A stretch of 64,000 nucleotides of DNA. Origin: an uncultured Prevotella sp. (GTDB lineage Bacteria; Bacteroidota; Bacteroidia; Bacteroidales; Bacteroidaceae). The notes under the pieces are model-generated. The model saw only the letters and a program-made list of their open reading frames with translations, was not told the origin of the DNA and did no database searches. Shown here one piece after another: positions 6,946 through 12,125 of this stretch (its first letter is position 1; the number at the start of each line of letters is the position of its first letter). The position numbers and the translations under genes were made by a program. The stretch is from the NCBI GenBank assembly GCA_946402275.1, contig CAMIVY010000010.1:1-64000 (forward strand). Reading direction: 5' to 3'.

Positions 6946-7689
6946 TTATTGCTTTTTAATCTGTTTTACCGGGAAAGTAAAATAGGTGTCGGGGAATGGT
7001 TCGTTGGCCAACGTGAAATGCCACCATTCCGTATCCATAGGCTTGAAACCGTGTTTTAGCATGACGCGGCGCAGCAACATGCGGTTTTGGAACTGCTGCT
7101 CGGTAATGCTGTCGTTGGGGGTATATTCGAACGTGTCGGGATTGCCACCGAAATCCGGATGACTCTCAATGCCGAACCAGTCGAACGTGCCTCCCATATC
7201 AACCTCCTTCTCCGTATTCATGTCAAACAGCGTCAAATCGACCGTTGAACCACGTGTGTGACCACTCTTTTCCATAATGTAACGCTGTGGGAAAAGCACG
7301 CTCTTCTCTAGTTGTGGATAGAAGAAGCGTTTCATCAGCGAATCGTTGGGGTCTTTTGACCAGCGGACAAAGTGATCGACAGCTTTCTGTGGACGATAGG
7401 CATCGTAGATTTTTAGACGATAACCCATCTTCATCACTTCCTGACTGACCGCCTGCAAGCTGTCTGCCGCCTGTTTGGTCAGCAAAGCCGTAGGCTCTTC
7501 ATAGCCGTCAATACGTGTACCCACAAAGTTGTAGGTGCTGAAATAGCGTATCTCCAGAATAGCATCAGGTACTGCATCTGTCAGGGTCACAAAAGCACTC
7601 CTGTCATTGGGACGCACCATCTGCTTGGCGTTGTCGGAACAAGCCAGCAGCAGGATGGTTGTCAGCAAAAACAAACCAGTTTTTTTCAT
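6946..7689 (-). CDS. D-alanyl-D-alanine dipeptidase, VanX/DdpX family lipoprotein
   Basis: LLLACSDN lipobox; YDAYRPQKAVDHF; SGHTRGSTVDLTL; DTEWWHFTL. Confidence 0.92.
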   Translation of the reverse strand: MKKTGLFLLTTILLLACSDNAKQMVRPNDRSAFVTLTDAVPDAILEIRYFSTYNFVGTRIDGYEEPTALLTKQAADSLQAVSQEVMKMGYRLKIYDAYRPQKAVDHFVRWSKDPNDSLMKRFFYPQLEKSVLFPQRYIMEKSGHTRGSTVDLTLFDMNTEKEVDMGGTFDWFGIESHPDFGGNPDTFEYTPNDSITEQQFQNRMLLRRVMLKHGFKPMDTEWWHFTLANEPFPDTYFTFPVKQIKKQ

Positions 7690-7870
7690 CATCAGCATAA
7701 TTTTTTAATGAAACACGCTGCAAAGATACAAAAAAATTGCATATCGTATGCTAATATCAGTTGTAATCTGTTTAACGGTATCGTTAGATGTTTTTATCTC
7801 GATTGTTTGGAAGTTTCAAAGAAATCTACTATCTTTGCACGCAGATTTTAGATTATAAATCAGAAATGTT

Positions 7871-8725
7871 ATGAAGAAATTATGTGTTTTTGGTGGACTG
7901 TTTGCACTAATGTGCATGGTGGCCGCTTGTGGTGGAAAGACGGAGAGCAACCCCGAGGCTGACTCCCTGCGTACAGAACTGTCAACCCAGATGGAGGCTA
8001 TGGACGAGATGAACCTCTTCCTGGATGCTGTGAACATGAGTATGGATAGTGTGGTGAACATGGAAGGTCATGTGTTGCGCACATCAGGCGAGAGCCCCTT
8101 GTCGCGTAAAGAGCAGATAAAGCAGAACATGGAATCATATAAGCTCATACTGCAGCAGCAACGTGAACGTCTGGACATTCTGGAGAAGAAGCTGAAGGAC
8201 AGCAATGCCTATGCCGGTAAGATGCAGAAGACCATTGCCGCTCTGAAGAAGCAGTTGGAGGAGAAGGATGAAGCCATCGCCAAACTCTCCGAAGAGCTGG
8301 AGAAGCGTAACTTCCAGATTGACGAACTGAAGGACAATGTCGATCAGCTGAACGTTCAGGTGGCTGAATTGGAGGAAGATTCCAAAGCCAAGGACGAGGA
8401 AATCACGGAGCAGACCAATAAGATGAACGAGGCTTACGTCTTCATTGGCGACAAGAAAACGCTGAAGGAGTCTGGTCTGGCCGTGGGAGGTTCACTCTTC
8501 AAGAAGCTGAAGGTAAATGCTACGAATATCGACAAGAGCCTGTTCAAGAAAATAGATATCCGCGAGACTACCTCATTCCAGATTCCTGGCAAAGACGCTG
8601 AGATACTGTCGCAAGTTCCTGCTGGTTCGTATAAGCTCACCAAGGGAAACAACGCTACGATGCTGACCATTACCGATCCCACACGCTTCTGGAGTGTATC
8701 ACGCTTCCTGATTATCAAGTATTAA
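7871..8725 (+). CDS. Coiled-coil lipoprotein, function unknown
   Basis: MVAACGGK lipobox; long heptad-rich region (LKKQLEEKDEAIAKLSEELEKRNFQIDELKDNVDQLNVQVAELEED). Confidence 0.8.
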   Translation: MKKLCVFGGLFALMCMVAACGGKTESNPEADSLRTELSTQMEAMDEMNLFLDAVNMSMDSVVNMEGHVLRTSGESPLSRKEQIKQNMESYKLILQQQRERLDILEKKLKDSNAYAGKMQKTIAALKKQLEEKDEAIAKLSEELEKRNFQIDELKDNVDQLNVQVAELEEDSKAKDEEITEQTNKMNEAYVFIGDKKTLKESGLAVGGSLFKKLKVNATNIDKSLFKKIDIRETTSFQIPGKDAEILSQVPAGSYKLTKGNNATMLTITDPTRFWSVSRFLIIKY

Positions 8726-8751
8726 TCCGAACGTTCGGTTCTATAAAAATA

Positions 8752-8783
8752 AGAAAGCATCTGGTACAATCCAGATGCTTTCT
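8752..8783. terminator. Terminator hairpin
   Basis: AGAAAGCATCTGG-TACAAT-CCAGATGCTTTCT. Confidence 0.85.
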
Positions 8784-8817
8784 TTGTTTTCATCCCGGAA
8801 AGCCGGGTTTATTACGC

Positions 8818-9426
8818 TTAAAGATAAAAAACGGATTCGGGTCCCATACAGAAGAGCAAGTCCAGAATGCTCAAATTCGCCAAGAAACCGTGTTTGTGCT
8901 GAAATACCTGCCAGTAGGGTTTAGCCTCGAAGTCATTGTCTGGAAGTGGGTGCTTGGCGTGTATCACATCACGATAATCGGCACTCTCCTGCCATTGACT
9001 GTTATAGGCCGAGGTATATTCTGTTTGGGGCTGAATGTCTATCAGCTTGCAGACTGTCTCACGGATAGCCTCGTTGAAATCGACGAGAAAGTCGTAGCGC
9101 TTCTCGAAGAAGGGGCGGATATCGTCAGCGTAGTATTCGAAGAAGGGGCTCTCGCTGTAAGCCGACTGTAGGGCGTTCCAATGAATGCGGCGCCACTGGT
9201 TATGGTCGCTGATGCGAAGGTCTTTTACCAGCATCCTGTCATTGTTGTGCTCAACGGGAACAGTGAGCGCCTGCACCCCATTTGCCGTAGCTATCAGACA
9301 ACGGTTGCGATAGGTTTGTTTTTGATAGGAGTCATGCTGCTCTATTATGCAATGGTCAAAACGGTGGAGTTTCTGATACCATTGTATCGGACCGAAGTAG
9401 GTTGTCTGAAGGATGGCAGTGTTCAT
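8818..9426 (-). CDS. WbqC-like family protein
   Basis: TTYFGPIQWYQKL...IEQHDSYQKQTYRNRCLIATANG. Confidence 0.85.
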   Translation of the reverse strand: MNTAILQTTYFGPIQWYQKLHRFDHCIIEQHDSYQKQTYRNRCLIATANGVQALTVPVEHNNDRMLVKDLRISDHNQWRRIHWNALQSAYSESPFFEYYADDIRPFFEKRYDFLVDFNEAIRETVCKLIDIQPQTEYTSAYNSQWQESADYRDVIHAKHPLPDNDFEAKPYWQVFQHKHGFLANLSILDLLFCMGPESVFYL

Positions 9427-9923
9427 CGCAATCTGATGTTTCTCCGGTTATAAAGCACGGTGACTACTCTTCCGATGATGTCGCACTCGGGGATGAATCC
9501 AAGATGGCGCGAATCTACAGGGTTCTCTTGATTGATGGCTTCCAACCAGTAATAGTCTGTCTTGGCACAAGTCTTCAGTCCGGGTACCAACAACGGGCCG
9601 TTAATGGTATGGATAGTGTCGCCGGGAACAGCCGTGCAACGGGCTATGCAGATGCCTTTAATGGAATCGCCTGGCAGGTTAAAGGCTACGATATCGCCTT
9701 TGGTTACAGGTTTTCTCATCAGCCTGCTATAGGGAAGCAGTCCGTTGCCCTCTATTCGCATGCCGTAGCTGCAACGGTTGATGAGCAACTGGTCGCCATT
9801 CTGGTAGAGTGGGGCGAGTCCGTTACCATTCACACTATGTACGGAAACGACCAAAGCACGTGCTACCAGCATCAGTGCGAAAGCTGATGCCAAGGGGATT
9901 ACGTACTTCAGCCATTTTGCCAT
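9423..9923 (-). CDS. Signal peptidase I (S26)-like protein, probably catalytically inactive
   Basis: NGDQLLINRCSYG, RCTAVPGDTI, VDSRHLGFIPECDIIGRV align with S26; Ser and Lys positions replaced (see finding). Confidence 0.85.
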   Translation of the reverse strand: MAKWLKYVIPLASAFALMLVARALVVSVHSVNGNGLAPLYQNGDQLLINRCSYGMRIEGNGLLPYSRLMRKPVTKGDIVAFNLPGDSIKGICIARCTAVPGDTIHTINGPLLVPGLKTCAKTDYYWLEAINQENPVDSRHLGFIPECDIIGRVVTVLYNRRNIRLR

Positions 9924-9928
9924 ATTTC

Positions 9929-11359
9929 TTATTTTATGTTATCTACAAAGCGGAACAAGCGATTCCAGCGGATACCAGAGAATCCACTGCGGTCAGGGTC
10001 ACTTGACCACCAGATGAAGATAGGCTTTCCTACAATATGATCTTCAGGAACAAAGCCCCAATAGCGTGAGTCCAGCGAGTTGTGACGATTATCACCCTGC
10101 ATCCAGTAATAGTCCATCTTGAAAGTGTACTTTGTGGCAACCTGGTCGTTGATATATATCTTGCCGTCCTTCACCTCCAGCTTGTTGCCTTCATAGGTGC
10201 GGATGGGACGTTCATAGATGGGCAGGTTCTTCAGCGTCAGGTCGATGCTCTGGCCCTTGGCAGGAATCCAGATGGGACCGTAGTTGTCGCGCGTCCAGTG
10301 CATATTACCGTTCAGCGGATAGATGTCTGTTTCTGTGGCATCGGTGTTCAGCGTGATGCTTTCCACGATGTCCGTCCGCTTCTTGAGTTCCCTCACTGCG
10401 GCATTGGTCAGTGGCATGTATCCCTGTGTGTTGAGGCTCATCAGGTCTTCCATTGTGATGCCCAGTTCCTTCATCAGGTCATCGTTCAGACGGTCTTTCA
10501 GCTTGACATGATAAGTATATTGCACATTGTCGGGCTCCTTGTTGGCTTTACCGTCCAAGTAGATGATGTGGTCTTTGATTTGTAATGTCTGACCAGGCAG
10601 TCCCACACAACGTTTTACGTAGTTCTCCCTGCGGTCGGTAGGACGCGTGTCTATCAACCCGTATTCTTGGGGATTCTGTTCTATCGCCTGTCGGCCTGCC
10701 TGATAGAGGGTGTTGAAGTACAGGGGCAACTGTTCCTGTGTCAGCGAGTCAGGATTGGGACGCTGTGGGTAGATCTGATACCCCATCTGGTAGCACATCT
10801 GATAGAAATCGTAGGCCTGGTATTGCGGAGCGGAACAGATAGTGTCGCCTGCAGGATAGTTGAACACCACGATATCGTTGAGCTGAATCTGCCCCAAGCC
10901 CTTCACACGACGATAGTCCCAATGGGGCCATTCGAAATATGATTTGCACTCAAACAAGGGCATGGTATGCTGGGTCAGGGGCATTGTCAGGGGAGTCTCA
11001 GGAATACGAGGTCCATAGCTTACCTTCGACACGAAGAGATAGTCACCCGTCAACAGCGATTTCTCCAGTGAGGATGATGGGATAACGTAGTTCTGGAAGA
11101 AAAACAGGTTGATGAAATAGACGGCGACTAGTGCGAACACCAATGCGTCAACCCACGACATCACCCACTTCACAGGACCTTCTGCATCCTTCCACCATTG
11201 CCACTTGATTTTCTTCGTGATATAGATGTCGTAGATGAAAGGAATCACTAAGAGTCCCCACCATGACTCTACCCAGTAAAGGAACAACAGGTATAGCACC
11301 AACACGCAGATGAACTTAGCCCACTGCACCTTCATATTCAGCTTTTTCTTTTTTTCCAT
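9929..11359 (-). CDS. lepB: Signal peptidase I
   Basis: VIPSSSLEKSLLTGDYLFVSKVSYG, YVKRCVGLPGQTL, GDNRHNSLDSRYWGFVP. Confidence 0.95.
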   Translation of the reverse strand: MEKKKKLNMKVQWAKFICVLVLYLLFLYWVESWWGLLVIPFIYDIYITKKIKWQWWKDAEGPVKWVMSWVDALVFALVAVYFINLFFFQNYVIPSSSLEKSLLTGDYLFVSKVSYGPRIPETPLTMPLTQHTMPLFECKSYFEWPHWDYRRVKGLGQIQLNDIVVFNYPAGDTICSAPQYQAYDFYQMCYQMGYQIYPQRPNPDSLTQEQLPLYFNTLYQAGRQAIEQNPQEYGLIDTRPTDRRENYVKRCVGLPGQTLQIKDHIIYLDGKANKEPDNVQYTYHVKLKDRLNDDLMKELGITMEDLMSLNTQGYMPLTNAAVRELKKRTDIVESITLNTDATETDIYPLNGNMHWTRDNYGPIWIPAKGQSIDLTLKNLPIYERPIRTYEGNKLEVKDGKIYINDQVATKYTFKMDYYWMQGDNRHNSLDSRYWGFVPEDHIVGKPIFIWWSSDPDRSGFSGIRWNRLFRFVDNIK

Positions 11360-11380: not shown

Positions 11381-11413
11381 CTAGATGGTCTAGACTTGTC
11401 TAGATAATCTAGA
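11381..11413. repeat. Four CTAGA motifs spaced 9-10 bp between lepB and dapB
   Basis: TTTCTAGATGGTCTAGACTTGTCTAGATAATCTAGAATTT. Confidence 0.8.
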
Positions 11414-12125
11414 ATTTAAACATATCGCTGATGGTCAGCAACCCTTGATGCTCCTTCGTATATTCAGCAGCCAGCACGGCACCGAGGGCAAAGCCTTGAC
11501 GCGAGTGGGCATCGTGGGTAATGGTGATGATGTCAGCCTCAGAGTCGTAGCGGACAGTATGGATGCCAGCAACCTCTCCACGTCGGATATGGTCTATGCG
11601 CAACAGCTTGGGGTCGGTAGTGTCTTCTGCCCACGCCTCCTTACGGTCGATATTCTCCAGAATACCCTCAGCCAGTGTGATAGCAGTCCCTGAAGGATGG
11701 TCGAGCTTATGTACGTGGTGCGTCTCTTCCATCTCGACGTCGTATTGTGGGAACTGGTTCATGATCTTGGCCAGGTATTTGTTGACAGCCGAGAAAATGG
11801 CCACGCCGATGGAAAAGTTGGAAGCCCAGAACAGTGTTTGTCCTTCTTCTGAGCACATACGCTTCACATCGTCGCCGTGCTCCTTCATCCATCCTGTACT
11901 GCCACTAACCACTTTTACATGATGCTTGAAGGCACGCAGATAATTGCCATAAGCAGCCTGTGGAGCCGTAAACTCTATCGCTACATCAGCACTCTTGAAG
12001 GCCTCGCTGTCGAAGTCTTCCTGATTGTCGATATCGATAATACTCACAATCTCATGACCACGGCTGAGGGCTATCTGTTCTATCATTTTACCCATCTTGC
12101 CGTAGCCGATTAAAGCTATTTTCAT
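11409..12125 (-). CDS. dapB: 4-hydroxy-tetrahydrodipicolinate reductase
   Basis: MKIALIGYGKMGKMIEQIA; SGSTGW; EETHHVHKLDHPSGTA. Start placed at internal Met because the longer ORF runs into microrepeat DNA. Confidence 0.95.
   Translation of the reverse strand: MKIALIGYGKMGKMIEQIALSRGHEIVSIIDIDNQEDFDSEAFKSADVAIEFTAPQAAYGNYLRAFKHHVKVVSGSTGWMKEHGDDVKRMCSEEGQTLFWASNFSIGVAIFSAVNKYLAKIMNQFPQYDVEMEETHHVHKLDHPSGTAITLAEGILENIDRKEAWAEDTTDPKLLRIDHIRRGEVAGIHTVRYDSEADIITITHDAHSRQGFALGAVLAAEYTKEHQGLLTISDMFKF

What the first reader, a model, noticed from the sequence alone, without database searches (positions are those of the whole stretch)
9423..9923. Signal-peptidase paralog missing both catalytic residues
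Next to a complete lepB (IPSSSLEKSLLTGD; YVKRCVGLPG), the smaller S26-like gene reads VNGNGLAPLYQNGD and IARCTAVPG. Counting back from the conserved GD, the catalytic Ser position (-8) is Gly, and the Lys of KRxVGLPG is Ala. The fold-defining segments (RCSYG, PGDTI, DSRHLGFIPECDIIGRV) remain. It may be a pseudo-protease acting as a regulator or chaperone for LepB, in an apparent operon with lepB and a WbqC-like gene.
Basis: partly seen in the sequence, partly recalled or inferred. Interest (0 to 1): 0.6.

Follow-up and report, generated by a model that had tools for sequence, protein, structure and literature searches.

The report
Conserved dead signal peptidase beside LepB
Many Bacteroides- and Prevotella-type bacteria carry, right behind the gene for the enzyme that trims exported proteins, a second copy that has lost both cutting residues but is still kept by selection, which suggests it binds or handles exported proteins instead of cutting them.

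Summary
ORF 9423-9923(-), 166 aa, is a Peptidase_S26 protein. Aligned to E. coli LepB, its Ser90 position is Gly35 and its Lys145 position is Ala94. LepB next door (9929-11359) is intact. The loss is not strain decay: among 100 same-genus copies (30-100% identity) none has the Lys and two have the Ser (both with Gly at the Lys position). The same gene lies between lepB and wbqC in Bacteroides-type genera as a ~315 aa protein; none of 60 same-family copies has an intact dyad. In other Bacteroidales families 22 of 28 tandem copies are dyad-less. Outside the order, 13 of 15 tandems examined have both copies intact. So an ancestral active pair gave rise to a pseudo-signal-peptidase. It is under purifying selection, keeps hydrophobic cleft positions and a predicted membrane helix, and has relaxed the glycine facing the lysine. 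Its closest solved fold is the inactive Streptococcus pyogenes SipA. A role as LepB regulator or chaperone is plausible but untested, and some Prevotella have dropped the gene. Inactive paralogs of active signal peptidases are known (S. aureus SpsA/SpsB), so this is a new, order-wide variant of a known kind.

The parts
9423..9923 (-). pseudo-signal-peptidase gene (166 aa; predicted TM helix 2-24, then SPase-fold beta domain)
   Evidence: Pfam/NCBIfam; phmmer to E. coli LepB; AlphaFold2 model pLDDT 72.8, pTM 0.65; best PDB fold match SipA 4n31
9819..9821 (-). codon for Gly35 at the catalytic Ser (E. coli Ser90) position
   Evidence: alignment; 0 of 100 copies combine Ser and Lys
9642..9644 (-). 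codon for Ala94 at the catalytic Lys (E. coli Lys145) position
   Evidence: alignment; no Lys in 100 copies
9929..11359 (-). lepB, complete type I signal peptidase with Ser/Lys dyad (476 aa)
   Evidence: Pfam 135.9 bits; S/K at both positions
8818..9426 (-). wbqC-like gene, start codon overlapping the pseudo-peptidase stop by 4 nt
   Evidence: Pfam PF08889 134.5 bits; coordinates; same overlap in 87 of 148 loci
11409..12125 (-). dapB, first gene of the apparent operon (start placed at the MKIALIG Met; the mechanical ORF runs to 12233)
   Evidence: NCBIfam TIGR00036 139.5 bits
8751..8784 (.). bidirectional terminator-like hairpin at the end of the operon
   Evidence: consensus match only

Best explanation
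The gene encodes a membrane-anchored pseudo-signal-peptidase: a second signal peptidase I copy, ancestrally active and tandem to lepB, that lost its Ser/Lys dyad but kept fold, anchor and hydrophobic cleft positions. Shown by sequence: dyad loss, its conservation, intact tandem copies in other orders, gene order, purifying selection. [quoted passage not shown]
For: Dyad absent in all 100 same-genus copies down to 30% identity and in all 60 same-family copies, while LepB at the same loci is S/K in every readable copy (the one exception listed, L189, is a mislabelled second copy). Both-intact tandem lepB-lepB2 in 13 genomes outside the order, lost in 2. At least 4 changes of dyad state on the tree. 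G272, the glycine next to the Lys, is G in 125/125 LepB but 4/60 same-family copies, while the cleft positions I86, L95, I101, V103 and I144 stay 98-100% hydrophobic in them. dN/dS 0.125 versus 0.067 for LepB in the window's clade, 0.078 versus 0.028 in the Bacteroides-type genus. Fold nearest to inactive SipA 4n31, E 2.2e-05. Operon linkage.
Against: No functional datum of any kind was available. Several Prevotella genomes have lepB directly followed by wbqC with no recognisable copy (for example L193-L197 and L199-L202), and others keep only 137-169 aa forms, so LepB works without it there. The 'IPS' turn of the cleft is degraded in Prevotella copies (VNGNG), though kept in the Bacteroides-type ones (IPSSGM). 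SipA, the closest analogue, showed no peptide binding in vitro (PMC4049620).
Confidence: 0.5

Rival explanations
1. SipA-like assembly factor: the protein serves a surface structure or envelope pathway (possibly with WbqC) and has nothing to do with LepB's activity; the lepB linkage is inherited from the tandem duplication.
For: Best solved fold is SipA, which is needed for pilus polymerisation and not for signal peptide cleavage (PMC4049620); stop/start overlap with wbqC in 87 of 148 loci.
Against: No pilus or sortase genes beside it; wbqC stays beside lepB when the gene is lost, so wbqC does not depend on it.
Confidence: 0.25
2. Slowly decaying relic of a duplicated signal peptidase with little or no function.
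For: Length falls from ~315 aa to ~245, ~170, ~140 aa and then to absence within one family; branch lengths far above LepB's.
Against: dN/dS 0.08-0.125; full-length open frames in most copies; a conserved P2-specific motif G-D/E-R-V/I-L/M-V-N-R/K-W-S-Y-G in most copies; presence across many families.
Confidence: 0.12
3. The protein is still a protease, using other residues (for example Cys119) in place of the dyad.
For: Cys119 is invariant in the Prevotella-type sets; many box residues remain.
Against: No invariant Lys replaces the lost one and S52 is shared with active LepB; no Cys is conserved in the wider set with Bacteroides-type copies; replacements at the two sites drift widely (G, A, Q, T, N, R, K, D and S, G, C, A, Y, N).
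Confidence: 0.05
4. Dominant-negative brake: it competes with LepB for precursors and limits processing.
For: Conserved hydrophobic cleft positions without the dyad and apparent co-transcription with lepB.
Against: No evidence for a need to limit LepB; sequence cannot separate it from an assisting role.
Confidence: 0.08

Closest known systems
Staphylococcus aureus SpsA (paralog of active SpsB)
   Same: Type I signal peptidase paralog lacking both catalytic residues in a species with an active peptidase; dispensable (PMC12445088). That spsA and spsB are adjacent is from my own knowledge, not tested.
   Different: Different phylum; no orthology shown here. The Bacteroidales gene is a family traced over many genera, with active tandem forms in other orders and a wbqC gene behind it.
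Streptococcus pyogenes SipA (PDB 4n31)
   Same: Small, single-domain SPase fold, Ser and Lys replaced (Asp, Gly), box-E glycine replaced, cleft retained (PMC4049620); best fold match to the AlphaFold2 model.
   Different: SipA is in a pilus operon with a class-B sortase; here the neighbours are lepB and wbqC. Sequence similarity is very weak (phmmer E 0.78).
LepB2, active second signal peptidase in other Bacteroidia orders
   Same: Same position behind lepB; probably the ancestral state.
   Different: Ser/Lys intact there and the proteins are longer, 318-484 aa.
E. coli LepB / TIGR02227 signal peptidase I
   Same: Fold and boxes B-E recognisable; passes the family's score cut-off.
   Different: No catalytic Ser, Lys or box-E Gly; one predicted membrane helix; about half or less the length of the LepB next door.

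Membership tests
Type I signal peptidase (S26A), active enzyme | Peptidase_S26 homology | tested here: met
   64.6 bits vs 22.9; TIGR02227 70.8 vs 47
Type I signal peptidase (S26A), active enzyme | catalytic Ser (box B) | tested here: not met
   Gly35
Type I signal peptidase (S26A), active enzyme | general-base Lys (box D) | tested here: not met
   Ala94
Type I signal peptidase (S26A), active enzyme | box E Gly-Asp next to the Lys | tested here: not met
   Ala-Ile in place of Gly-Asp
Type I signal peptidase (S26A), active enzyme | cleavage of signal peptides | not testable with these tools
   needs biochemistry
Inactive SPase I paralogs (SpsA/SipA-like kind) | SPase fold with dyad lost in all near orthologs | tested here: met
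Inactive SPase I paralogs (SpsA/SipA-like kind) | active SPase I present in the same genome | tested here: met
   lepB is the adjacent gene; no other S26 gene found in the 89%-complete assembly
SipA pilus-assembly factor | located in a sortase/pilin cluster | tested here: not met
   neighbours are dapB, lepB, wbqC
SpsA | common descent with staphylococcal spsA as an inactive lineage | not tested
   staphylococcal sequences were not put in the tree; intact tandem copies in other Bacteroidia orders argue for separate inactivation

The most novel reading that the evidence does not exclude
The protein is a dedicated, non-cleaving partner subunit of LepB across Bacteroidales, a bacterial counterpart of the accessory subunits of eukaryotic signal peptidase complexes, that sets which precursors are processed or hands cleaved proteins to later envelope steps.
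Probability: 0.2. Interest if true: 0.8.

Novelty: new variant of a known kind. Interest (0 to 1): 0.55.

Why it matters
Bacteroidales dominate gut and rumen communities and export very large numbers of envelope proteins. A pseudo-signal-peptidase kept next to the signal peptidase gene across much of the order, with active tandem copies in neighbouring orders, gives a natural series (active, one residue lost, both lost, shortened, deleted) for asking what a signal peptidase fold does when it cannot cut. It also bears on annotation: family models name such proteins 'signal peptidase I' although they almost certainly cannot cleave, which would miscount peptidases, for example in work on peptidase inhibitors.

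Tried and rejected
Recent decay or assembly error: rejected, dyad-less copies in 76 of 200 same-genus genomes. Alternative Ser/Lys pair: rejected, no invariant candidate. A further signal peptidase gene elsewhere in the genome: none found. A link to the Bacteroidetes Q-rule (Gln at +1): considered, but the rule is phylum-wide (PMC5837995) while this gene is lost in many Prevotella and active in other orders, so no simple link. LepB co-folding was not possible because only single chains can be folded.

Full report
Observation. The ORF at 9423-9923 on the minus strand encodes 166 aa and scores well above the curated cut-offs for Peptidase_S26 and signal peptidase I. A residue-by-residue match to E. 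coli LepB puts Gly35 at Ser90 and Ala94 at Lys145; Arg146 is kept, and the box-E Gly-Asp reads Ala-Ile. The neighbour at 9929-11359 is a complete LepB. The gap from lepB to this gene is 5 nt, and its stop overlaps the wbqC start by 4 nt (coordinates). The order is dapB - lepB - pseudo-peptidase - wbqC, then a terminator-like hairpin at 8751-8784. The assembly (89% complete) shows no further S26 gene.

Orthologs in the genus. In 200 genomes of the same genus, 76 (this one included) have a recognisable copy (a lower bound, since short forms were found later by profile search). Wherever lepB was within the stretch held, the copy lies directly behind it. In an alignment of 100 copies (some from near-identical genomes held in two collections) no copy has Lys at the Lys position, and two have Ser, both with Gly at the Lys position. 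Replacement pairs run with sequence similarity (Gly/Ala, Gly/Cys, Ala/Gly, Ala/Tyr and so on).

Family, order and class. With a profile, the same slot holds a ~300-320 aa protein in Bacteroides-type genera, ~245 aa in others, ~170-200 aa in most Prevotella that have it, 137-169 aa in further Prevotella, and nothing recognisable in some, where lepB is followed by wbqC directly. Typical Bacteroides-type motifs are IPSSGMENSLFQGERILVNKWSY and ISRCIGLPGDT, that is, a near-intact cleft turn with Ser to Gly and Lys to Ser. Counting tandem copies: same family 60 copies, none with S/K; other Bacteroidales families 28 copies, 22 without and 6 with S/K; LepB in the first position S/K in every copy whose sequence reaches both sites (one row, L189, is a mislabelled second copy). 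Four of the six intact ones are ~475 aa and group with LepB in the tree, so they are separate duplications. In other orders of the class, tandem lepB-lepB2 is S/K in both copies in 13 genomes and lost (Asp/Gln) in 2 (loci were chosen because a tandem was visible, so this is not an unbiased rate).

Tree. In a maximum-likelihood tree of 90 sequences, with the two trait columns left out, the same-family copies form one branch (100/99) and the dyad state needs at least 4 changes (bootstrap range 4-4); Ser alone needs 7 and Lys alone 4. Long branches and the short window sequence (48% of columns) make deep placements uncertain. Parsimony counts do not tell gain from loss; I read them as losses because the tandem partners in other orders and all LepB are intact.

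Selection. Nei-Gojobori dN/dS for 71 pairs in the window's clade: median 0.125 for this gene, 0.067 for LepB (synonymous sites are near saturation in many pairs, and pairs are not independent). In the Bacteroides-type genus: 0.078 versus 0.028, 9 pairs. So the protein is maintained, about two to three times less tightly than LepB. Position by position, the glycine facing the Lys is relaxed together with the dyad, while cleft positions I86, L95, I101, V103 and I144 remain 98-100% hydrophobic in the same-family copies. Those cleft assignments rest on E. coli LepB numbering carried through the alignment and on general knowledge of the SPase structure. A feature not in LepB is an Arg after box-B Gly-Asp/Glu in 53 of 60 same-family copies, where LepB has Tyr or Phe.

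Structure. AlphaFold2 with 22 rows gives one helix at 2-24 and a beta domain; mean pLDDT 72.8, pTM 0.65, weak at 54-68, and the other four models are poor (53.8 and below), so detail should not be trusted. Foldseek against the PDB ranks S. pyogenes SipA 4n31 first (E 2.2e-05), then S. aureus SpsB and other signal peptidases. SipA has Asp and Gly in place of the dyad and a replaced box-E glycine, keeps the cleft, shows no peptidase activity, and is needed for pilus polymerisation (PMC4049620).

How it most likely works. A membrane-anchored, non-cleaving signal-peptidase domain, apparently co-transcribed with LepB, most likely binds precursor or mature N-termini at the periplasmic face of the membrane. 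The sequence evidence for loss of catalysis is strong. The partner and the direction of the effect are inferred. The main counter-evidence is that some Prevotella do without it. A SipA-like role outside LepB processing, perhaps with WbqC, is the main rival; the overlap of stop and start codons with wbqC is seen in 87 of 148 loci, but wbqC stays next to lepB where this gene is lost.

Known or new. Inactive signal peptidase paralogs are known: S. aureus SpsA lacks both catalytic residues and is dispensable (PMC12445088), and Gram-positive genomes hold further SPase-fold proteins without the dyad (PMC4049620). I found no paper on the Bacteroidales gene in the open library. The claim here is therefore a new, order-wide, probably independently evolved variant of a known kind, with its active ancestor-type form traced in neighbouring orders.

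Noticed in passing
window 7871-8725 (+): Matches NCBIfam NF052320, 'Cbp1 family collagen-binding glycoprotein adhesin' (239 bits vs 90), convergent with the lepB operon.
   Followed up: no
window 6946-7698 (-): By eye resembles a D-Ala-D-Ala dipeptidase (VanX-like) lipoprotein; not searched.
   Followed up: no
L167-L169, L171-L176, L192: Very short (137-169 aa) forms of the pseudo-peptidase in other Prevotella, apparently on the way to loss; in L193-L197 and L199-L202 lepB is followed by wbqC with no copy detected.
   Followed up: partly
L286 and L287: In one family outside the order (code f144) the second signal peptidase reads Asp/Gln at the dyad: a separate inactivation.
   Followed up: partly
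L145, L214, L144, L226: Other Bacteroidales families have lost only the Ser (replaced by Lys, Leu or Arg) and still carry the Lys, so the two residues went at different times in different lineages.
   Followed up: partly
window 9423-9923 and same-family homologs: A P2-specific conserved motif G-[DE]-R-x-[LM]-V-N-[RK]-W-S-Y-G, with an Arg where LepB has Tyr/Phe; the window's own copy departs from it (GDQLLINRCSYG).
   Followed up: partly
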